DNA of 64,000 bases from Atopobium fossor DSM 15642 (GTDB lineage Bacteria; Actinomycetota; Coriobacteriia; Coriobacteriales; Atopobiaceae). Positions 39,710 through 51,388 of the stretch are shown here, one piece after another (within the stretch, counting starts at the first letter, position 1; each line of letters starts with the position of its first letter). The stretch covers positions 717,124 through 781,123 of the forward strand of contig NZ_KI519553.1 of NCBI RefSeq assembly GCF_000483125.1, in the 5' to 3' direction. The notes beneath the pieces are model-generated. The model was not told the origin of the DNA. It searched no databases and was given only the letters and a program-made list of their open reading frames with translations. Both the position numbers and the translations under genes were made by a program.

Positions 39710-40705
39710 CTACTTAAGGGTTGCGTACATTACAGCCTTAATGGTGTGCATGCGATTCTCTGCCTCAGCAAATACCTTAGATGCAGGAGATTCGAATACC
39801 TCGTCGGTAACCTCCATCTCGGTAATACCAAACTTCTCAGCAACAACAGCACCCTTCTTGGTGTTGGTGTCGTGGAAGGAAGGCAAGCAGTGCATGAAGA
39901 TGGCGTCATCGGCAGCCATAGCCATAACCTCAGAGGTTACACGATAAGGCTCCATCAGAGGAATGCGCTGCTTGTAAAGCTCGTCAGGCTCACCCATGGA
40001 TACCCAAATGTCAGTATAAATAACGTGAGCACCCTTTACGCCCTCAGCAACATCAGAAGTAAGCGTAATGGTAGAACCATTCTGAGCAGCAATCTCACGG
40101 CAGGTTGCTACAAGATCCTCTGTAGGCATGTTCTCCTGAGGACCACAAGCAACAAAGTTCATGCCAAGCTTAGCGCAAACAACCATCAAAGAGTTAGCAA
40201 CGTTGTTGCGAGCATCACCCATGAATACGAGGGTCTTACCCTTGATGTCATTGTTGAAGTTCTCTTTAACGGTAAGGATGTCAGCAAGCATCTGCGTTGG
40301 GTGGAAATCGTCAGTCAGACCGTTCCATACAGGCACACCAGCCTTGTCAGCCAGCTCCTGAACTACGTCCTGATCAAAACCACGGTACTCAATACCGTCA
40401 TACATACGGCCAAGTACACGAGCGGTATCCTCTACGGACTCCTTGTGGCCCATCTGAGAACCACTGGGCTCAAGATATGTTACGCCCATGCCAAGATCAT
40501 AAGCGCCAACCTCAAATGCGCAGCGAGTGCGGGTAGAGGTCTTCTCAAAAATAAGGGCAACATTCTTGCCCTCAAGATAACGGTGAGGAACACCAGCCAT
40601 CTTCATACGCTTGAACTCTGCAGAAAGGTCGAGCAAGTAGTTAATCTCCTCAGTGGAGAAGTCAAGCAGCTTAAGGAAGCTACGACCAGAAAGGCTTACA
40701 CCCAT
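39710..40705 (-). CDS. arcB: ornithine carbamoyltransferase (catabolic)
   Basis: In arginine fermentation this enzyme splits citrulline with phosphate into ornithine and carbamoyl phosphate. The carbamoyl-phosphate motif [41 protein letters not shown] and the ornithine motif HCLPSFHD are visible. At 331 residues it is the size of catabolic OTCs. The start [16 protein letters not shown] at ATG 40705 is preceded by GAAAGGA. Its neighbours arcA and arcD argue for the catabolic role. Confidence 0.94.
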
Positions 40706-40773
40706 GGATACGATCCTTTCAAATAGAAAAACAGTAACCGGGCTTCCCCGGGTGGTGCCGATTTAGACAGTAC

Positions 40774-40808
40774 TAGTCCGGAGGTGAGCTTAACTCATCT
40801 CCGGACTA
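40774..40808 (-). other. 15-base stem-loop between arcA and arcB
   Basis: TAGTCCGGAGGTGAG (40774-40788) pairs with CTCATCTCCGGACTA (40794-40808) with a single mismatch. It lies 20 bases beyond the arcA stop. No T-run follows on the minus strand, so it is not a standard terminator. It may protect or cut the message and so set different levels of ArcA and ArcB. Confidence 0.6.
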
Positions 40809-40828
40809 AGCTTTAGAACTCTATAAAC

Positions 40829-42079
40829 TTAGAGATCCTCACGTACAAAAGGCATGCTCATGCAGCGTGGGCCACCACGACCGCGGGAAAGCTCTGCGGA
40901 AGGTACAACGAGAAGGTCAAGGCCCTCTTTGTACAGTACGTCGTTAGTAACGGAGTTGCGCTGATATACGCAAATCTTACCAGGAGCAACGCAAAGGGTG
41001 TTGGAGCCGTCGTTCCACTGCTCACGAGCAGCTGCAACAGGGTCGCCACCACCACAAGGAATGAGCTTAACAGCGTCAAGACCCATAGCCATTGCAAGGA
41101 TGTGCTCGAGGGTATCGTTCATCTCTTCAATCTTGACTTCGCCCTGGGTAGCACCCTTGGTAAGCTTGAATACACGCAAGGTACCCATGATTGCAGGGTG
41201 AATGGTGAACTTGTCAACATCGATCTGAGTGAATACGGTATCGAGGTGCATGAATGCACGAGTTGCAGGAATGTCGAATGCATAGATGGTGTCAATCTCG
41301 CACTCGTCACCCTTCTCCCAGAACATGTTCTGAGCCATGATGTCGATAGCAGCAGCTTGGGTGCGCTGAGAAATACCAACAGCCAAGGTATGAGCGTTGA
41401 TGTTAAGAACGTCGCCGCCCTCAGTGTGAGCTGCAGAGTCACGACGGAACCACAAAGGAGCATCGTTGTACTCAGGGTGATCACGGAAGATGTACTTACC
41501 AAAAAGGGTCTCGCGGTTACGAGTTACGGAGTACATACGGTTGAGGTTAACACCCTTACCTACAATTGCGAAAGGATCGCGAGTGAAGTAGGTGTTAGGC
41601 ATTGGGTCAATAAGAAGGTCAGACTCGCCATCAGCGTCGTGACCGATAATCTCATCAAGAAGAGCGGTGGAGTTAGCAGGAAGATCAATCTCGTTCTTAC
41701 GGATACCAGCAATGGTCTTCTCTACGAAGGTCTGGGTATCGGTAATAGAGTCCATGAACTCCTTAACAGCCTTGCGAGCAGTTGCGCCATGAAGACCAGA
41801 CTCGTCGAGCCACTGATTGGTGAACTCCTCACGGGAGCCAGCAGCATCAAGCGCCTCAGCAGTCAACTTCTCGAGGTATACAACCTCAGCACCTGCCTCC
41901 TGAAGAAGCTCAGCAAATTTATCATGCTCAGCCTGAGCTACCTCAAGGAAAGGTACATCGTCAAACAAAAGACGACCAAGCTCATCGGGGGGAAGATTGA
42001 GAAGCTCCTCGCCAGGGCGGTGAAGGCAAACCTTCTTCAGAGAGCCAATCTCGCTGTGGACGTAGAGTCCGTTAGCCAT
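40829..42079 (-). CDS. arcA: arginine deiminase
   Basis: ArcA hydrolyses arginine to citrulline and ammonia, the first step of the ADI pathway. The protein shows the start GLYVHSEIGSLKKVCLHRPGEEL, FTRDPFA, RDSAAHTEGGDVL, FMHLDTVFTQID and the C-terminal RGRGGPRCMSMPF loop with the catalytic Cys. I start at ATG 42079, right after GGAGGAGGGACA, giving 416 residues. No carbamate kinase (arcC) follows in this window, so ATP formation from carbamoyl phosphate must use a gene elsewhere. Confidence 0.97.
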   Translation of the reverse strand: MANGLYVHSEIGSLKKVCLHRPGEELLNLPPDELGRLLFDDVPFLEVAQAEHDKFAELLQEAGAEVVYLEKLTAEALDAAGSREEFTNQWLDESGLHGATARKAVKEFMDSITDTQTFVEKTIAGIRKNEIDLPANSTALLDEIIGHDADGESDLLIDPMPNTYFTRDPFAIVGKGVNLNRMYSVTRNRETLFGKYIFRDHPEYNDAPLWFRRDSAAHTEGGDVLNINAHTLAVGISQRTQAAAIDIMAQNMFWEKGDECEIDTIYAFDIPATRAFMHLDTVFTQIDVDKFTIHPAIMGTLRVFKLTKGATQGEVKIEEMNDTLEHILAMAMGLDAVKLIPCGGGDPVAAAREQWNDGSNTLCVAPGKICVYQRNSVTNDVLYKEGLDLLVVPSAELSRGRGGPRCMSMPFVREDL

Positions 42080-42726
42080 TGTCCCTCCTCCTTTCATGTC
42101 GCATCCCTGCGACGTATCTGGACTTTGCATGCTTAATGCATGCACTACTACCAACACGGCATTGCGGCACACTTGTGCACCGCGCCCGTGGATTTACGGT
42201 TATCAATATACATCCGTTATCCAATAATGCAACGTAAAATTCTGAACGGTATATTTGTGACTGTTAACGGTCTTGAAATACTCAACTACTCATAAACTGA
42301 CCATATATCCATCATAAACTAGGTGATTAACTGGACTTTTATTATTTTTACAGAACTTTACTTTGTTCTATTTGTAAATTTTTTCTTGTAATTTTATTTT
42401 TCTTGCATTTTTTAAATATTTCATAATATGCAAGATGTTGGGTATTTTATGTAATAAATTCCACTTGTCGGATATTAATATTTTAAATTTTTGACTCACC
42501 TATAACAATTTGCGCTCTAACGTGCGGAAGTACCAGCTTATAAAGCTAGGCTAGTACTCATTTGTCATGTGTCAGAATATACTTTTATATTTGCGTATTA
42601 GAATAATTTGTACACGAATTATTTATTTGTTGTATAACCAAACTGCAATTTTAAATTGATGAATTTGCAATAAAATAATTTTGAAAAACATAATTTTTAT
42701 TGAACATTCAAACAGATTGATTTGTT
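42080..42726. other. AT-rich gene-free region between arcA and an RNA methyltransferase gene
   Basis: I find no credible gene in these 647 bases. The stretch from 42230 to 42726 is much richer in A and T than the genes around it. It holds the arcA-side motif pair, long-range arms CTTGCAT (42402-42408) and ATGCAAG (42428-42434), and a 7-8-7 inverted repeat AATAATT-TGTACACG-AATTATT (42602-42623). It probably carries the arcA control region and a promoter for the plus-strand gene. An old insertion scar is another possibility. Confidence 0.6.
42196..42226 (-). promoter_or_regulatory. arc-shared motif, two copies upstream of arcA
   Basis: CCGTTATCCAATA (42214-42226) matches the arcD copy in 12 of 13 bases and sits at a like distance from its gene. 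A shortened relative, CGGTTATCAATA (42197-42208), precedes it by about 17 bases in the same orientation. The pair may be a tandem operator. Confidence 0.5.
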
Positions 42727-44183: not shown

Positions 44184-44834
44184 ATGCTTAACGTTGTGCT
44201 TGTAGAACCCGAAATTCCTGCAAATACTGGCAACATTGGTCGAACGTGCGTAGTAACAGGAACACGTCTACACCTTATTAAGCCACTAGGATTCTCGTTA
44301 GATGATAAAAGTCTCAAGCGTGCTGGCATGGCATATTGGCAAAGTCTTGATGTGCGAGTTTATGATAATTGGGATGAATTTATAACCCAAAATATTCCCT
44401 CCTCAGACACTGAAGTTGACTGTATGCGCAATAATGCAAATGTCACCGTACCGCAACTGCACTTCTTAACTAAAAAAGCTCGTAAAACTTACGTTGAAGG
44501 TTCGTATTGTGACGGAGATTTTATTATCTTTGGCAAAGAAAGCTCTGGACTACCTGAGCATTTGCTCGCTCAACATGCTTTGGAGTGTGAGCGTATTCCC
44601 ATGCTTACCGATGATGAAGCTTTGGTAAATGGTGCTGATTGGAGCGATAAAAATACAGCTCTGACTTGGGAAGGAACGCCGCGCACACATGAAGCACTTC
44701 TTGCTCAAGATATCTGCGGTAACTTTATTAATCCCGAAGAGTATCACGTCAGTGCACTTAATCTATCTAACGCAGCAGCGATAGTTCTTTACGAGGCGTT
44801 ACGACAAATTAATTTTGTTACTATACAAAATTAA
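44184..44834 (+). CDS. trmL: tRNA (cytidine(34)-2'-O)-methyltransferase-like SPOUT enzyme
   Basis: TrmL methylates the wobble ribose of tRNA-Leu. The N-terminus LNVVLVEPEIPANTGNIGRTC, FIIFGKESSGLPEHLL and the C-terminal knot LNLSNAAAIVLYEALRQ are diagnostic. The protein is 216 residues, about 55 longer than the usual 155 to 160. The extra length includes an insert before the ALNLSNA knot (about residues 140-190, with GADWSDKNTALTWEGTPRTHEALLAQ) and one near residues 68-85. Function of the inserts is unknown. AAGGT precedes the ATG. Confidence 0.88.
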   Translation: MLNVVLVEPEIPANTGNIGRTCVVTGTRLHLIKPLGFSLDDKSLKRAGMAYWQSLDVRVYDNWDEFITQNIPSSDTEVDCMRNNANVTVPQLHFLTKKARKTYVEGSYCDGDFIIFGKESSGLPEHLLAQHALECERIPMLTDDEALVNGADWSDKNTALTWEGTPRTHEALLAQDICGNFINPEEYHVSALNLSNAAAIVLYEALRQINFVTIQN

Positions 44835-44837
44835 AGC

Positions 44838-44866
44838 TTGCATAACTGCAATAGGACGCGTACAGT
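44838..44866 (+). promoter_or_regulatory. candidate promoter of the Trp leader and ECF transporter
   Basis: TTGCAT (44838-44843) and TACAGT (44861-44866) are separated by exactly 17 bases. Transcription would begin about 40 bases before the leader-peptide ATG. The -35 match is modest. It overlaps the end of the trmL region only by a few bases. Confidence 0.45.
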
Positions 44867-44912
44867 TCTTAGCAATTAAAACATTTTTTGAGAAAATCAA
44901 AGGAGGCGCACG

Positions 44913-44987
44913 ATGACCTGCTCCGCAGTACAGTTTGTTTCCAACAACTGGTGGTGGTACATGCTTATAGCGAATGGTCGATCGTGA
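44913..44987 (+). CDS. tryptophan-sensing leader peptide
   Basis: A 24-codon reading frame starts at ATG 44913, six bases after a strong AAAGGAGG site (44899-44906), and stops at TGA 44985-44987. The peptide contains three consecutive Trp codons (44949-44957) within NNWWWYM. Trp is the rarest amino acid, so a WWW run in a short, well-initiated frame directly ahead of a terminator is the mark of a classic attenuation leader. Ribosomes short of Trp-tRNA would stall at codons 13 to 15. The genes controlled are an ECF transporter with a TrpP-like subunit. It is too short for ordinary gene calling. Confidence 0.9.
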   Translation: MTCSAVQFVSNNWWWYMLIANGRS

Positions 44988-45046
44988 GTCTTCTGCATGC
45001 ACTATACGTAGCATTTGAGAAACTCCCGGGAGACCGGGAGTTTTTT
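44986..45046 (+). promoter_or_regulatory. transcription attenuator with mutually exclusive hairpins
   Basis: The terminator hairpin AACTCCCGG (45021-45029) / CCGGGAGTT (45034-45042) with a GAGA loop is followed by six T (45041-45046). A competing stem pairs GAGT-c-TTCT (44986-44994) with AGAAACTC (45018-45025), eight pairs with one bulged base, helped by ATGC (44997-45000) / GCAT (45011-45014). It covers the first half of the terminator arm. A ribosome that finishes at the stop codon (44985-44987) would cover the 5' arm of this antiterminator and let the terminator form. A ribosome stalled on the Trp codons would leave it free. Confidence 0.85.
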
Positions 45047-45119
45047 ATTAACTCGAGGTGAACCAAGCAGAACATTAGTATCCAACAAGCATCCAGCGCA
45101 GTTAGAAAGAAGAACGCAT

Positions 45120-45683
45120 ATGCCTAGACCAGATCAACAACCGCGCGTGTTAGCGGTCGAGAAAACCGATGAGCTTGAGATCCGTTCGCTTATCTTACTT
45201 GCCATTCTTCTTGCTGCAGGGTTTATCTTAAATTTTACTGTTGGTAAGGCTATCTCGAGCATTTCGGGCGGTATGATTAGTCCCGAATTTATCATTTCAG
45301 CATTTTGTATCACTATTTTGATTGTGAAACCACGCGTACGCCAAGCCTTTATTATTGGTCTCATTTCTGCTGCAGTCATTCAAATTACCACGACGTCACC
45401 ATTTATTGACTTTGCTGCTGAAGGTATTGCCGCTGTGCTTATGGCGCTCATGGTTCGTATTGGAAATAAACTTCCCTACAAAAGAGCACTTCCTTTTATT
45501 AGTACGGTAATTACTACTACGATTTCTGGTCTCATTTTTATGGTTATTAAGATTGCTATGATTGGCGCCGCTTCTCAACTTGTTGCTGCCATGACACCTG
45601 TAATTATTCTGACAGCCGTTTTTAATGCAGTACTTGTACAAAGTCTGCACAAGCCTATTGTTGACGCCCTAAAGATTGGATAG
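45120..45683 (+). CDS. ECF transporter substrate-binding (S) subunit, TrpP-like, probably for tryptophan
   Basis: This membrane protein of 187 residues has about five or six hydrophobic helices. The SSISGGMISPEFIISAF segment, then KPRVRQAFIIGLISAAVIQITTTSPFIDFAAEG, resembles TrpP-type tryptophan transport proteins. It starts at ATG 45120 after a modest AGAAAGAAG site; the longer frame from 45015 would run through the terminator and is not real. The ATPase gene begins 2 bases later. Tryptophan as substrate rests on the TrpP likeness and on the Trp leader peptide upstream, two independent hints. Confidence 0.82.
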   Translation: MPRPDQQPRVLAVEKTDELEIRSLILLAILLAAGFILNFTVGKAISSISGGMISPEFIISAFCITILIVKPRVRQAFIIGLISAAVIQITTTSPFIDFAAEGIAAVLMALMVRIGNKLPYKRALPFISTVITTTISGLIFMVIKIAMIGAASQLVAAMTPVIILTAVFNAVLVQSLHKPIVDALKIG

Positions 45684-45685
45684 AT

Positions 45686-47455
45686 ATGACTACACAATCA
45701 GTTATTCGTCTTGAGGACGTAAGTTTTTCTTATACATCTCATACAAATGACGCGATGACACAGAAATTTGCACTTGACGTAATAAATTTAGATATTCATC
45801 AAGGTGAATTTGTAGGTATTATTGGCCCTTCTGGTGCAGGCAAGTCTACTCTTGCAGCGGTGCTTTCTGGAGCAATCCCCCATCATACACAGGGGATGTT
45901 CTATGGAACTGCTTTTATCAATGGTCAAGACAGTTGCACCATAAACCTCACGGACATTTCCAAGCATGTAGGAAGCGTACTGCAAGATATAGACTCTCAA
46001 ATGGTTGCCTCTGTCGTAGAAGATGAGATTCTATTTGGTCTGGAAAACTTTGGTGTTCCCCATACTCTCATCGAAAAGCGCCTAGAAGATGCACTCACTA
46101 CAACAAATATGAATGACTTTCGTTACCGAGACATTGCAACGCTATCCGGCGGCCAAAAACAAAAGCTTGCCTTAGCAGCCATTTTGGCACTGCAGCCTCA
46201 AATCTTAGTTCTTGATGAACCAACCGCTGCACTCGATCCCCGCTCTTCTCAAACCATCTTTGACCTGCTCAAAAACTTATCGCAAAACCATGGTATTACC
46301 GTTGTAGTGATAGAGCAAAAAGTGGCACTACTTTCTCAATACTGCTCACGCATGCTTGTGATGGAACACGGCCGTATTGCACTTGATGGCACTCCACGCA
46401 AAGTATTACAACACAGCAGCGAGCTACGAACTATTGGAGTAGACACCCCTCGTGTGACCAGAATTTCAAACAGTTTGTATGCTGCAGGCCTTTTAGATAA
46501 ACCGCAACCCAGTATTACACCCTCGGAGGCGTGCAATCAGATTTGCACACTACTCACATCAGCATCTCCAACACAGCAATTAATAGCCCCTGTCGAGAAA
46601 ACTTATACAAACCCAGCTTCCTACAGCTCAAACAACGTTGTTGCACGCGTTTGCAACTTGGGATTCTCGTATGCAAACGGCGCCTCTATTCACAACCTTA
46701 GCTTTGATTTGCGTGAAGGAGAAACGCTAGCTGTTATTGGTCAAAATGGCGCTGGTAAAACTACCCTTACTAAATTGATGAACGGACTTCTGCATCCTAA
46801 AACAGGAAGTGTATGTATTGCAGGAATGGATACGCGCACCACACCAACCAGCACGCTTGCTGCGTCGGTAGCTACTCTGTTTCAAAACCCAGATCATCAG
46901 TTATTTAAAAACACAGTACTTGACGAGGTAAGCTTCACTCTTGAAATTCATGGCTGTGATCAGACAAGTGCTCGGACCCGTGCACAAAAAATATTAGACA
47001 AATTTAAACTCCCCGCACAGGCATCGCATTTCCAGCTTTCACGCGGACAACGTCAAATGGTTGCTTTAGCTAGCGTTGTGGTGTTGGAACCTAAGCTTGT
47101 CATTTTAGATGAACCAACAAGTGGCTTGGATTATCGTGAATGCATGACTGTTATGCAGGCAATCAAGGAGCTTACTCATAACAAAACTGCAGTGCTCATG
47201 GTCTGTCATGACATGGAAGTGGTACTGGACTTTGCTGATCGTGTACTTGTAATGGCAGACGGATATCTACTAGCTGATACCTCACTGGACAAAGCATGCA
47301 CCGACCAACAACTCATGAAAAAAGCGTTTGTACAGCCACCTCAAACTATTGCGCTTGCCACACAGCTTGTAGAAACAGGCTATCCGCAATATAGAGGACT
47401 AACCCAAGTAGAACAGTTTGTAGCAACTACAAGTGAAATGATACGCCATGAATAA
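45686..47455 (+). CDS. ECF transporter ATPase, two fused ABC domains
   Basis: The energising ATPases EcfA and EcfA' are joined in one 589-residue chain. The first domain has Walker A GPSGAGKS (47-54), signature LSGGQKQKLALAAI and Walker B ILVLDEPTAALD. The second has Walker A GQNGAGKT near 352, a variant signature LSRGQRQMVALAS and Walker B VILDEPTSGLD. An unstructured linker of about 50 residues joins them. It overlaps the T-component gene by 8 bases, so the S-A-T set is one transcription unit. Confidence 0.95.
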   Translation: MTTQSVIRLEDVSFSYTSHTNDAMTQKFALDVINLDIHQGEFVGIIGPSGAGKSTLAAVLSGAIPHHTQGMFYGTAFINGQDSCTINLTDISKHVGSVLQDIDSQMVASVVEDEILFGLENFGVPHTLIEKRLEDALTTTNMNDFRYRDIATLSGGQKQKLALAAILALQPQILVLDEPTAALDPRSSQTIFDLLKNLSQNHGITVVVIEQKVALLSQYCSRMLVMEHGRIALDGTPRKVLQHSSELRTIGVDTPRVTRISNSLYAAGLLDKPQPSITPSEACNQICTLLTSASPTQQLIAPVEKTYTNPASYSSNNVVARVCNLGFSYANGASIHNLSFDLREGETLAVIGQNGAGKTTLTKLMNGLLHPKTGSVCIAGMDTRTTPTSTLAASVATLFQNPDHQLFKNTVLDEVSFTLEIHGCDQTSARTRAQKILDKFKLPAQASHFQLSRGQRQMVALASVVVLEPKLVILDEPTSGLDYRECMTVMQAIKELTHNKTAVLMVCHDMEVVLDFADRVLVMADGYLLADTSLDKACTDQQLMKKAFVQPPQTIALATQLVETGYPQYRGLTQVEQFVATTSEMIRHE

Positions 47456-48194
47456 TTTGATTGACTATACGCCTGGAACCAGCTTTTTACACCAGCTTAA
47501 CCCTGTTACCAAGCTTGTGCTAGCCACCTGCATCATTGCTGCAACGCTTGTTGCCCATTCTTTTGCCATGCTCATTGCACTATTAGGCTTGAGCTTTATT
47601 CTTGCGGCATGCGCAAAAGTTGCTCGTAAACTAGGTACGTTACTCTATATGCTTATCCCACTTGCCCTTATCATGCTTGCGTTTCAAACTTTTTTTATCC
47701 AAGATGGAACTCGTCTTATAGCTTGGGTAACTAATACTGGTCTTACCACAGGCGTATTGGTGGCGTTGCGGCTCATTGGAATTGCACTTCCGCTGGTGCT
47801 TATGCTTATGGTCACACGTCCTAATGATCTTGCTAATGCCAGCGTTGAACTGCTGCATATTCCGTACCGTTACGCATTTACCTTTACCACGGCACTGCGC
47901 TTTATTCCCATTTTTTCTAAAGAAATGACCGCTATTATGGAAGCGCAAACTGCGCGAGGTGTGCAGTTTGACACCAAAAATCCGCTCAAAAAGATGCAGC
48001 TTAAGATGCCCGTTATTATTCCATTACTGGTAAGCTCTGTGAGAAAAACAGATGATACTGCCCTAGCTGCCGAACAGCGAGGATTTTATCTACGTACCGT
48101 ACAAAACTCCTACAGGCACTACCCTCTTACCACTCTTGACTATGTGGTACTAATAGGCTGCATACTTCTTATCGCTAGCGCAATCTTACTGTAA
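47448..48194 (+). CDS. ECF transporter transmembrane (T) component
   Basis: EcfT couples the ATPases to the S subunit. The N-terminus TSFLHQLNPVTKLVLATCIIAATL, five or so membrane helices and the coupling-helix motif EAQTARGVQFDTKNPLKK with a later ALAAEQRGF match the family. Length 248 is normal. Having its own dedicated T and A parts suggests a group I (single-substrate) ECF system. It ends 9 bases inside the convergent pcp gene. Confidence 0.93.
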   Translation: MNNLIDYTPGTSFLHQLNPVTKLVLATCIIAATLVAHSFAMLIALLGLSFILAACAKVARKLGTLLYMLIPLALIMLAFQTFFIQDGTRLIAWVTNTGLTTGVLVALRLIGIALPLVLMLMVTRPNDLANASVELLHIPYRYAFTFTTALRFIPIFSKEMTAIMEAQTARGVQFDTKNPLKKMQLKMPVIIPLLVSSVRKTDDTALAAEQRGFYLRTVQNSYRHYPLTTLDYVVLIGCILLIASAILL

Positions 48195-49018: not shown

Positions 49019-51388
49019 ATGATAGCGACAAAGAAAGGGTATTCGCTTCTCAAAACCGCTGGCAAAGCCGTAACGCTTGGCGCAGCTGTTTTGATGGCGC
49101 TCCCCATCGATGCACTGGCTTGCACTCAGGTGTACGTTGGACCTAAAGTCACAGATAGTGGCAATGTCTATGTTGGCCGTACCGAGGACTACAATCCTCG
49201 TCACGGCAAGGTTTTTGGCATTCAAGAGCCTCGAACTAATCCAACGTTCACCTCTGATGAATCCAACTTTAGTTGGACTTACACCGGCACCACACACCGT
49301 CACACCTATGTGCGTGACCTTGCTGGTGACTGGGGCGGTCGCCACGATGCCTATTCTGAGGCAGGCACCAATGATGTAGGCGTAAGTGTTTCTGCAACCC
49401 TTACCACCGATTACAATGGTGCTATGAAGGCAGCCGATCCTTGCGGCAGCGAAGATCAAAATAATCCAAGTGGTATTGGCGAATATACCGTTACCGATGT
49501 TTTGCTGGGCTGCTCTAGCAATGCACGCGAAGGTGTAAAACTGCTTGGCTCCATCATAGATGCACATGGCAACTATGACTGCAACCAGATTATTATCACG
49601 GATAACTCCGAGACCTGGGTATTTATGCAGCTTTCTGGTCACCAGTGGTGTGCAGTTAACCTGACGGTAGCTGCTCCTGATCAGGTTTCTGTTAATCCCA
49701 ACATGGGCAACCTTAAGTTTAAAGTAGACCTCAACGATGAAAATGTCTGCATTCACTCCGCTAATCTTGAAAAGACTGCAAAGGATGCTGGTACCGCCAC
49801 TTACTTTGATGCTGAGAAGAAACAGCTTGATGTTGCTACATCTTATGGCAATCCAAACTCTGGCACGGGACAGTACACACGTTATGCCCAAGGTCATGCT
49901 CATTTTGGCGATATGTTGTCCAAGGATAACTATGTTATGGGCACCCAGGGTGTGACCAAGGTTCATGACACCCAACTACTCTTTACCCCTGGCAAGACTG
50001 GCGTTACCCTCATGGACTCCATGAAAGCTTTGTGCGCTCGTGGTCAGGGCACTGGTTTTGATGCAAACACCAACAATGGCTTTTACTCCATTGGTAACAA
50101 CCGCAACGTCGAAGGTCACATGTTCCAGATTCGTCAGGGCATGTCTGCCGATATTGCTACCATCCAGTGGGAAAACCTGTCTCGCGTAGAGTTTGGTCTG
50201 TTTGTACCTAGCTACTCTGCACTTCTCAGCGAGATTGACACCAATATCTATCCTACGCTTGACAAGTTTACGGATGAGCACACGGGTGGCTCTGAGCGCA
50301 ATGACTCTGTAGCAGCAGCAATGGATGCTTCTAACGAGAACGGCTCTTTAGATTACGTCATTATGGATATCAATACCTTGGCGTACAACAACCGCGCTGA
50401 CTTAGCTAAGCCCGTTCGTATGTATCTTGATGCACTTCAGAAGCAGCTCATTGCCCAGCAGAACGTTGTTGATGCCGTAATGCAAGCAACCCCTGCAGCT
50501 GAGCGTACTGCATTTGCAAATGCTGCCCATAAACAGGCAAGCGCGCAGGCTTATGCTAAGACCTATGGTTTGCTCACCGAAATGCGCACCTGGCTTAAGG
50601 GTGACAAGTCTTCTGCCTTTGTTCCGAGCGATTGGGATGCAAATACCAATGACACCAAGGTGCCTATATACTACGCAACCGTAGCAGTTGCCCCTGCTAT
50701 TACCAGCATCTCTGACTCCACAACCGTTAAGGTTGATGAGACTGTAGAGCTCAAGGTAGAAGCCAACATTCCTGACAGCGTTAAGGGTAGCGATCAGTTT
50801 ATGAGCATTGAGTGGTTTAACAAGACCACAGGTGCAAAGGTAGCTGACGCGGACACCGTCAAGGTTGACACCTCCAAGACTGGCGCCACCGAGTACTACG
50901 CCATAGTAACTAACACTGTTTCTGGCAAGAAAACTACTTCCGATACAGTAACTGTTACCGTTGAGGCCCAGTACAAGATGGAGAAGGCTCCTACCCAGGT
51001 AACACAAGGTAAAGACGCTAACTTTGTATCCGAGGCAGATTTTAATAAGTTTGTTGAGGTTCGTGTAGATGATACGGTTGTTGATCCTTCTAACTACACT
51101 GCAAAGTCCGGCTCTACTGATGTAACCCTTAAGGGTTCTTACACCAAGACCTTGGCTGCTGGCGAGCACACCTTGGATATTATTTCCAATGATGGTAAAG
51201 CACGTTCCAAGTTCACAGTGGTAAAGGCAAGCTCACAAACCACCAATGCAGCTAAGCCTAGCAAGAAGAATGCTGGTCATCTTCCCAAGACGAGCGATAA
51301 TACCAATGTAGCTGTAGCATCTGCTATGGGTATTGCTGGTATTGCTCTGAGCTTAGTAGCCGTAGACCGTAAGCGTAAGAATAACTAA
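49019..51388 (+). CDS. cell-wall-anchored C69-family dipeptidase
   Basis: C69 peptidases are N-terminal nucleophile hydrolases whose catalytic Cys is the first residue of the mature chain. Residues 1-34 form a signal peptide ending in ALA, and the next residue is Cys35 in CTQVYVGPKVTDSGNVYVGRTEDYNPRHG, so signal cleavage would expose the nucleophile. The catalytic domain runs to about 560. Two Ig-like modules follow (about 560-650 and 652-735). The C-terminus has an LPKTS sorting signal (755-759), a hydrophobic helix and KRKNN tail, so the enzyme is probably sortase-anchored. AAAGGAG precedes the ATG and a strong terminator follows. Confidence 0.92.
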   Translation: MIATKKGYSLLKTAGKAVTLGAAVLMALPIDALACTQVYVGPKVTDSGNVYVGRTEDYNPRHGKVFGIQEPRTNPTFTSDESNFSWTYTGTTHRHTYVRDLAGDWGGRHDAYSEAGTNDVGVSVSATLTTDYNGAMKAADPCGSEDQNNPSGIGEYTVTDVLLGCSSNAREGVKLLGSIIDAHGNYDCNQIIITDNSETWVFMQLSGHQWCAVNLTVAAPDQVSVNPNMGNLKFKVDLNDENVCIHSANLEKTAKDAGTATYFDAEKKQLDVATSYGNPNSGTGQYTRYAQGHAHFGDMLSKDNYVMGTQGVTKVHDTQLLFTPGKTGVTLMDSMKALCARGQGTGFDANTNNGFYSIGNNRNVEGHMFQIRQGMSADIATIQWENLSRVEFGLFVPSYSALLSEIDTNIYPTLDKFTDEHTGGSERNDSVAAAMDASNENGSLDYVIMDINTLAYNNRADLAKPVRMYLDALQKQLIAQQNVVDAVMQATPAAERTAFANAAHKQASAQAYAKTYGLLTEMRTWLKGDKSSAFVPSDWDANTNDTKVPIYYATVAVAPAITSISDSTTVKVDETVELKVEANIPDSVKGSDQFMSIEWFNKTTGAKVADADTVKVDTSKTGATEYYAIVTNTVSGKKTTSDTVTVTVEAQYKMEKAPTQVTQGKDANFVSEADFNKFVEVRVDDTVVDPSNYTAKSGSTDVTLKGSYTKTLAAGEHTLDIISNDGKARSKFTVVKASSQTTNAAKPSKKNAGHLPKTSDNTNVAVASAMGIAGIALSLVAVDRKRKNN

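What the first reader, a model, noticed from the sequence alone, without database searches (positions are those of the whole stretch)
44838..48194. Tryptophan leader-peptide attenuator controlling an ECF transporter, not trp biosynthesis
Directly seen: a 24-codon frame (44913-44987) with an AAAGGAGG site and three consecutive Trp codons, then a perfect GC-rich terminator with six T (45021-45046). A possible competing stem (44986-44994 with 45018-45025, eight pairs, one bulge) begins at the leader stop codon and covers half the terminator arm. This is the layout of ribosome-mediated attenuation. Downstream is not trpE but an S-A-T ECF unit whose S subunit resembles TrpP. From known cases, Firmicute trpP genes use TRAP or T-box control, and leader-peptide attenuators are mainly known for trp biosynthesis operons. 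A charging-sensitive leader in front of an ECF importer would link Trp-tRNA starvation straight to uptake.
Basis: partly seen in the sequence, partly recalled or inferred. Interest (0 to 1): 0.88.

Follow-up and report, generated by a model that had tools for sequence, protein, structure and literature searches.

The report
Tryptophan leader-peptide attenuator on importer
A short tryptophan-rich leader peptide and a switchable transcription terminator sit in front of a probable tryptophan importer in Coriobacteriia that mostly cannot make tryptophan, so a lack of charged tryptophan tRNA should directly switch on tryptophan uptake.

Summary
Leader, Shine-Dalgarno site, Trp-Trp-Trp run and terminator are where stated. 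64 of 65 homologous S genes have the same layout, and a model of the leader matches 123 of 398 sampled Coriobacteriia genomes. Own leader-terminator pairs beat swapped pairs (p 1.5e-4). The Gly codon is GGT in 67 of 67, and the motif persists where the ORF ends before it, so RNA rather than peptide is selected. The substrate is probably tryptophan: 29 of 35 S proteins match TrpP, orthologues in a sister family carry UGG T-boxes instead, the same leader precedes an unrelated NSS transporter, and 114 of 123 leader genomes, the window's included, lack TrpC. The nine that keep TrpC have a T-box, not a leader, at their trp locus. This is a new variant of the classical leader-peptide attenuator, on importers instead of biosynthesis. 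Switching and transport remain untested in cells.

The parts
44899..44906 (+). Shine-Dalgarno site of the leader ORF (AAAGGAGG)
   Evidence: sequence
44913..44987 (+). leader ORF, 24 codons, MTCSAVQFVSNNWWWYMLIANGRS*
   Evidence: homologous leader ORF upstream of 64 of 65 homologous S genes
44949..44957 (+). three consecutive Trp codons (regulatory codons)
   Evidence: TGGTGGTGG in nearly all homologues
44955..44964 (+). 5' strand of the protector helix P1 (third Trp codon onward); pairs with 44995-45004, 9 of 10 in the window by inspection
   Evidence: sequence; helix with changes on both sides in homologues
44995..45004 (+). 3' strand of the protector helix P1
   Evidence: sequence
44975..44979 (+). 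antiterminator outer 5' strand (TGGTC, around the Gly codon); pairs with 45032-45036
   Evidence: GGT codon in 67 of 67 Gly cases; swap test
44982..44994 (+). antiterminator inner 5' strand (TCG, GAGT, TTCT); pairs with 45018-45029
45018..45036 (+). antiterminator 3' strand: terminator 5' arm, loop and start of the 3' arm
45020..45046 (+). intrinsic terminator: 10-bp stem, GAGA loop, six T
   Evidence: terminator downstream of homologous leaders
45120..45683 (+). S component, TrpP-like, six predicted helices
   Evidence: 29 of 35 family members match PF17099; model pLDDT 84.5; best fold matches are ECF S components
45686..47455 (+). A component: fused double ECF ATPase
   Evidence: TIGR04520 and TIGR04521 above cut-off
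47448..48194 (+). T component (CbiQ/EcfT family)
   Evidence: PF02361, 97 bits

Best explanation
A ribosome-mediated transcription attenuator that senses charging of tRNA-Trp and controls a tryptophan ECF importer. Without translation, helix P1 (third Trp codon onward, paired with bases just after the stop codon) holds the antiterminator strand in its loop and the terminator forms. When Trp-tRNA is plentiful, the ribosome runs to the stop codon, covers the antiterminator strand, and the terminator forms. When Trp-tRNA is short, the ribosome stalls on the Trp codons, covers the 5' strand of P1, and frees the last codons plus the stop region to pair with the terminator's 5' arm, loop and 3' arm, so RNA polymerase reads on into S-A-T. 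Shown by sequence and computation: layout, conservation, paired changes, direction of the masking energetics. Inferred: ribosome stalling, read-through and the transported substrate.
For: Leader with a Trp run upstream of 64 of 65 homologous S genes. Model R1 matches at 25 bits or more in 123 of 398 class genomes. P1 has changes on both sides (C-G to U-A in 7, G-C to A-U in 4 of 30). Own leader x terminator pairing beats swaps, p 1.5e-4, n 34. Independent letters in the same place: CGGATTATCG x CGGTAATCCG (L156), ACTCTGA x TCAGAGT (L143), TCGTCCG x CGGGCGA (L116). Masking shifts antiterminator-minus-terminator energy from +10.6 (no ribosome) to +5.0/+4.1 (Trp stall) and +16.0 (stop) kcal/mol, mean of 52. 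Antiterminator better than with shuffled leaders, mean z -1.83. GGT in 67 of 67 Gly codons against 51 of 936 in the S genes. UGG T-boxes on orthologous S genes. Same leader on an NSS transporter, both units in tandem in G072. The window's genome lacks Chorismate_bind, TrpC and TrpB; TrpC in 9 of 123 leader genomes against 121 of 275 others.
Against: No expression or transport data. On the finished RNA the terminator stays more stable in 44 of 52 cases even with a Trp stall, so switching would have to be kinetic. Relatedness inflates the counts, and the Fisher test treats related genomes as independent. P1 is imperfect in the window and its nearest relative.
Confidence: 0.88

Rival explanations
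1. The leader peptide itself arrests the ribosome in response to free tryptophan, as TnaC does, and the conserved residues after the Trp run (Arg, then Gly-Arg before the stop) are the arrest sequence.
For: Arg after WWW and Gly-Arg before the stop are conserved in most leaders.
Against: The peptide tail is not conserved where the RNA is: in L107, L109, L110, L115 and the second leader of G072 the ORF ends one or two codons after WWWR, yet CGGTCGATCG follows outside it. Gly is always GGT (67 of 67) although GGT is 5% of Gly codons in the S genes. The codon after WWW is mostly CGC or CGT, as P1 needs. TnaC induces catabolism when Trp is high (general knowledge), the wrong sign for an importer in an auxotroph.
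Confidence: 0.04
2. The attenuator is real but the transporter carries something other than tryptophan (for example indole, another aromatic compound or a vitamin), with Trp-tRNA as a proxy signal.
For: ECF S components mostly carry vitamins (general knowledge); the window's own S protein has no Pfam match; the closest solved folds are pantothenate, thiamine and riboflavin S components.
Against: The family matches TrpP; orthologues carry UGG T-boxes; the same leader is on an NSS transporter, a family with a known Trp transporter, TnaT (PMC2494555). None of 38 tested TrpC-less leader genomes had a TrpB match over the cut-off, so indole could hardly be used.
Confidence: 0.06
3. A plain terminator of the upstream SpoU-family methyltransferase gene (44184-44834) with a chance Trp-rich ORF.
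For: An intrinsic terminator does lie between two genes on the same strand.
Against: 0.02 such ORFs expected per shuffled window; 64 of 65 homologous loci keep ORF and terminator; leader-terminator pairing with paired changes.
Confidence: 0.01

Closest known systems
[quoted passage not shown]
   Same: Short leader with two or three Trp codons, GC-rich terminator with a T run, mutually exclusive antiterminator, in the same phylum
   Different: They precede trp biosynthesis (and trpS in one Streptomyces); here the leader precedes importers. Here the antiterminator strand lies in the last codons and stop region and pairs across the terminator loop into the 3' arm.
T-box riboswitch (RF00230) on Trp genes, for example the S. 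suis trpX importer operon (PMC9382623)
   Same: Senses tRNA-Trp charging, controls a Trp importer in a Trp auxotroph
   Different: No T-box in the window; the sensor is a translating ribosome, not tRNA binding. T-boxes occupy the orthologous site in a sister family and the trp locus in leader-bearing genomes that keep TrpC.
TrpP (PF17099), predicted tryptophan S component
   Same: Family resemblance in 29 of 35 members, six-helix S-component fold
   Different: The window's own protein is below detection; here it lies in a dedicated S-A-T operon with a fused double ATPase. Not the C. glutamicum protein also called TrpP, whose authors exclude a role as Trp transporter (PMC11995493).
Candidate attenuators on histidine genes in Bacillota (PMC9413887)
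   Same: Predicted leader-peptide attenuators for the his operon and/or a transporter, alternating with T-boxes between lineages
   Different: Other amino acid, other phylum, mostly biosynthesis; here importers only.
TnaC leader of the E. coli tryptophanase operon (PMC8429421, PMC3902921)
   Same: A Trp-responsive leader peptide; the operon includes a Trp permease, tnaB (general knowledge)
   Different: TnaC senses free Trp by nascent-chain arrest and induces catabolism; no arrest sequence is conserved here.

Membership tests
Ribosome-mediated (leader-peptide) transcription attenuator | Short ORF with SD site and a run of codons for the sensed amino acid, ahead of the first gene | tested here: met
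   (promoter not mapped)
Ribosome-mediated (leader-peptide) transcription attenuator | Intrinsic terminator between leader and first structural gene | tested here: met
Ribosome-mediated (leader-peptide) transcription attenuator | Mutually exclusive antiterminator, conserved with paired changes | tested here: met
   swap test; shuffles; P1 pair counts
Ribosome-mediated (leader-peptide) transcription attenuator | Ribosome position decides between the two structures | tested here: inconclusive
   Masking shifts energies in the expected direction on average, but the terminator stays lower in 44 of 52; calculation only
Ribosome-mediated (leader-peptide) transcription attenuator | Read-through rises when the cognate tRNA is uncharged | not testable with these tools
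   needs an experiment
Rfam families, including known Trp leaders | Match to a curated covariance model | tested here: not met
   no relevant match in the leader region
TnaC-type arrest peptide | Conserved peptide sequence that arrests the ribosome | tested here: not met
   ORF ends before the conserved motif in several leaders; RNA-level codon constraint
T-box (RF00230) | T-box core and specifier loop upstream of the gene | tested here: not met
   window; present upstream of orthologous S genes (L147 E 1e-12, below the gathering score)
ECF transporter | S, A and T components | tested here: met
   A and T by families; S by family and predicted fold
TrpP tryptophan S component | Pfam PF17099 match | tested here: inconclusive
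   29 of 35 family members match at E up to 1, best 6e-8; the window's own protein does not
TrpP tryptophan S component | Binds and imports tryptophan | not testable with these tools
   indirect support only

The most novel reading that the evidence does not exclude
In Coriobacteriia two unrelated tRNA-Trp sensors are interchangeable parts: a leader-peptide attenuator on importers and a T-box on trp biosynthesis work side by side in the same cell, and they swap places on the same importer between families. The two could give different thresholds, uptake first and synthesis second.
Probability: 0.5. Interest if true: 0.75.

Novelty: new variant of a known kind. Interest (0 to 1): 0.62.

Why it matters
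It would be a class-wide tryptophan-uptake control in Coriobacteriia (Collinsella, Olsenella, Atopobium), tying Trp-tRNA charging to import in organisms that cannot make tryptophan. It gives a likely substrate for an S-component family that standard annotation partly misses (the window's protein has no family match). The same transporter under a T-box in one family and a leader peptide in another is a clean natural comparison of two tRNA sensors, and an antiterminator that pairs through the terminator loop is a testable variation on the textbook four-segment scheme.

Tried and rejected
Nascent-chain arrest: rejected, because the motif is kept outside the ORF and by codon choice. Chance: rejected. 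A second TGGTGGTGG ORF on the minus strand near 61.36 kb: inside an oxidoreductase gene. Leader upstream of trp biosynthesis: not found in nine TrpC-positive leader genomes; the two scan hits there look unrelated. R1 hits of the class search below 25 bits: those fetched (L118-L123, L132, L134, L135) look like chance, but one weak hit (G228, L154) is a real divergent leader. First masking run used a constraint that blocked all terminator bases; redone. Rfam at gathering thresholds missed the T-boxes; short-region searches by E-value found them in the three examined. RNAalifold on the full alignment was uninformative, probably because terminator loops vary in length.
Full report
What is there. 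The window holds a 24-codon ORF, 44913-44987, with AAAGGAGG at 44899-44906, reading MTCSAVQFVSNNWWWYMLIANGRS*. A 10-bp stem (45020-45029 with 45034-45043), a GAGA loop and six T follow. Then come S (45120-45683), a fused double ECF ATPase (45686-47455; TIGR04520 and TIGR04521) and a T component (47448-48194; PF02361). The region 44900-45055 folds at z -4.0 against dinucleotide shuffles. A start-plus-SD ORF with TGGTGGTGG is expected 0.02 times in a shuffled window; the one other case lies inside an oxidoreductase gene.

Conservation. A scan of species genomes with the S protein gave 65 loci, nearly all titled as Coriobacteriia: Atopobium minutum at 86% identity, then Olsenella, Collinsella, Slackia and others. 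64 of 65 have an upstream ORF with WWW and a terminator; L061 does not. In most, the distance from the first Trp codon to the stop is exactly 36 bases. A covariance model of the leader core, R1, searched 398 Coriobacteriia genomes; 123 have a match of 25 bits or more (counted). A search of 296 genomes of the phylum found 12 strong matches, all in the window's order, and two of 26-27 bits in other families that I did not examine.

What is selected is RNA. The third codon before the stop is GGT in 67 of 67 leaders that have Gly there, although GGT is 51 of 936 Gly codons in the S genes (relatedness not corrected). In family f2 leaders L107, L109, L110, L115 and the second leader of G072 the ORF stops one or two codons after WWWR, but CGGTCGATCG still follows, outside the ORF. 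So a TnaC-like arrest peptide is unlikely.

The structures. P1 pairs the third Trp codon and the codons after it with bases just after the stop: 82.5% of cells paired, C-G to U-A in seven and G-C to A-U in four of 30 sequences. In the window I read it by eye as 44955-44964 with 44995-45004, nine of ten pairs. The antiterminator is bipartite. The outer half joins the GGTC codons to the terminator loop and 3' arm: in the window 44975-44979 with 45032-45036, and 44982-44984 with 45027-45029 between. Across 34 leaders filtered at 75% similarity, own leader x terminator pairing averages -23.7 kcal/mol against -21.9 for swaps, p 1.5e-4. Divergent leaders show different letters in the same place: CGGATTATCG x CGGTAATCCG in L156, ACTCTGA x TCAGAGT in L143, TCGTCCG x CGGGCGA in L116 (sequences; complementarity checked by eye).

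Masking. For 52 leaders I folded the RNA that is free when a ribosome sits on the Trp codons or on the stop. Antiterminator minus terminator energy averages +10.6 kcal/mol with no ribosome, +5.0 and +4.1 with a stall at the first or third Trp codon, and +16.0 at the stop. The direction is as expected for attenuation. The terminator remains the more stable final fold in 44 of 52 even with the stall, so the choice would have to be made during transcription. The antiterminator is better than with shuffled leaders, mean z -1.83. One search was a faulty first version of this calculation.

Why tryptophan. (1) 29 of 35 S-family members match Pfam TrpP at E up to 1, best 6e-8; the window's own protein does not. 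The AlphaFold2 model has six helices, pLDDT 84.5, and its best PDB matches are ECF S components, with weak E-values. (2) 22 of 30 further S loci that I fetched, mostly of family f2, have a T-box core upstream, and the specifier reads AAA-UGG in 20 by a pattern search; for L147 Rfam T-box aligns end to end, E 1e-12, below the gathering score. (3) The same leader precedes NSS transporters (PF00209) in several f2 genomes, and in G072 leader-NSS and leader-S-A-T lie in tandem. NSS includes the Trp transporter TnaT, and Trp T-boxes control NSS members in Bacilli (PMC2494555). (4) The window's genome has no Chorismate_bind, TrpC or TrpB match. TrpC is found in 9 of 123 leader genomes and 121 of 275 others. 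Of 40 leader genomes searched for TrpB, only the two with TrpC had a match over the cut-off; one other (G096) has a fragment. Indole salvage is therefore unlikely.

Leader and T-box in one genome. In the nine leader genomes that keep TrpC I fetched the trp loci. A scan found no Trp leader there. All nine have a T-box core. In seven (L166-L170, L172, L173) the first long ORF after it reads like anthranilate synthase component I; for L171 and L174 the script picked another frame, so trpE was not confirmed there. A UGG specifier was seen in L168, L169, L170, L171 and L174. Rfam T-box aligns to L168 and L171.

What is known. Leader-peptide attenuators of trp operons and one trpS are described for Corynebacterium and Streptomyces (PMC1262725). 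A T-box controls a Trp importer in Streptococcus suis (PMC9382623). Histidine attenuators alternate with T-boxes in Bacillota and may control a transporter (PMC9413887). In the open-access library I found no report of this Coriobacteriia leader; subscription papers were not searched. I therefore call it a new variant of a known kind.

Limits. No experiment was done. Related sequences inflate the counts. Family labels f1, f2, f3 are anonymous. Promoter and transcription start were not mapped.

Noticed in passing
L105, L117, L125, L130: Two S genes in tandem behind one leader; the class search lists two S matches in many genomes.
   Followed up: no
L139 (G170), upstream of S: A terminator like the others is kept, but no Trp leader ORF was found; this genome has TrpC.
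   Followed up: no
L136 and L111: Leaders with Trp-Ala-Trp or only two Trp codons instead of three.
   Followed up: no
L015 and G253 (L133): Slackia carries a leader and S gene much closer to Collinsella than to most of its own family, which suggests horizontal transfer of the unit.
   Followed up: no
window 44901-44994: With no ribosome the predicted fold pairs the leader's SD and start region with the region around the stop; conservation of this was not tested.
   Followed up: no
window 39710-42172, minus strand: Two ORFs that read like ornithine carbamoyltransferase and arginine deiminase lie side by side (names from general knowledge).
   Followed up: no
window 49019-51388: Large ORF with an LPKTSD sequence near its C-terminal end, like a wall-anchored secreted protein (reading from general knowledge).
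   Followed up: no
G439:C169:5246-5283 and G425:C8:196-244: Two R1 hits of 26-27 bits outside Coriobacteriia; not examined.
   Followed up: no
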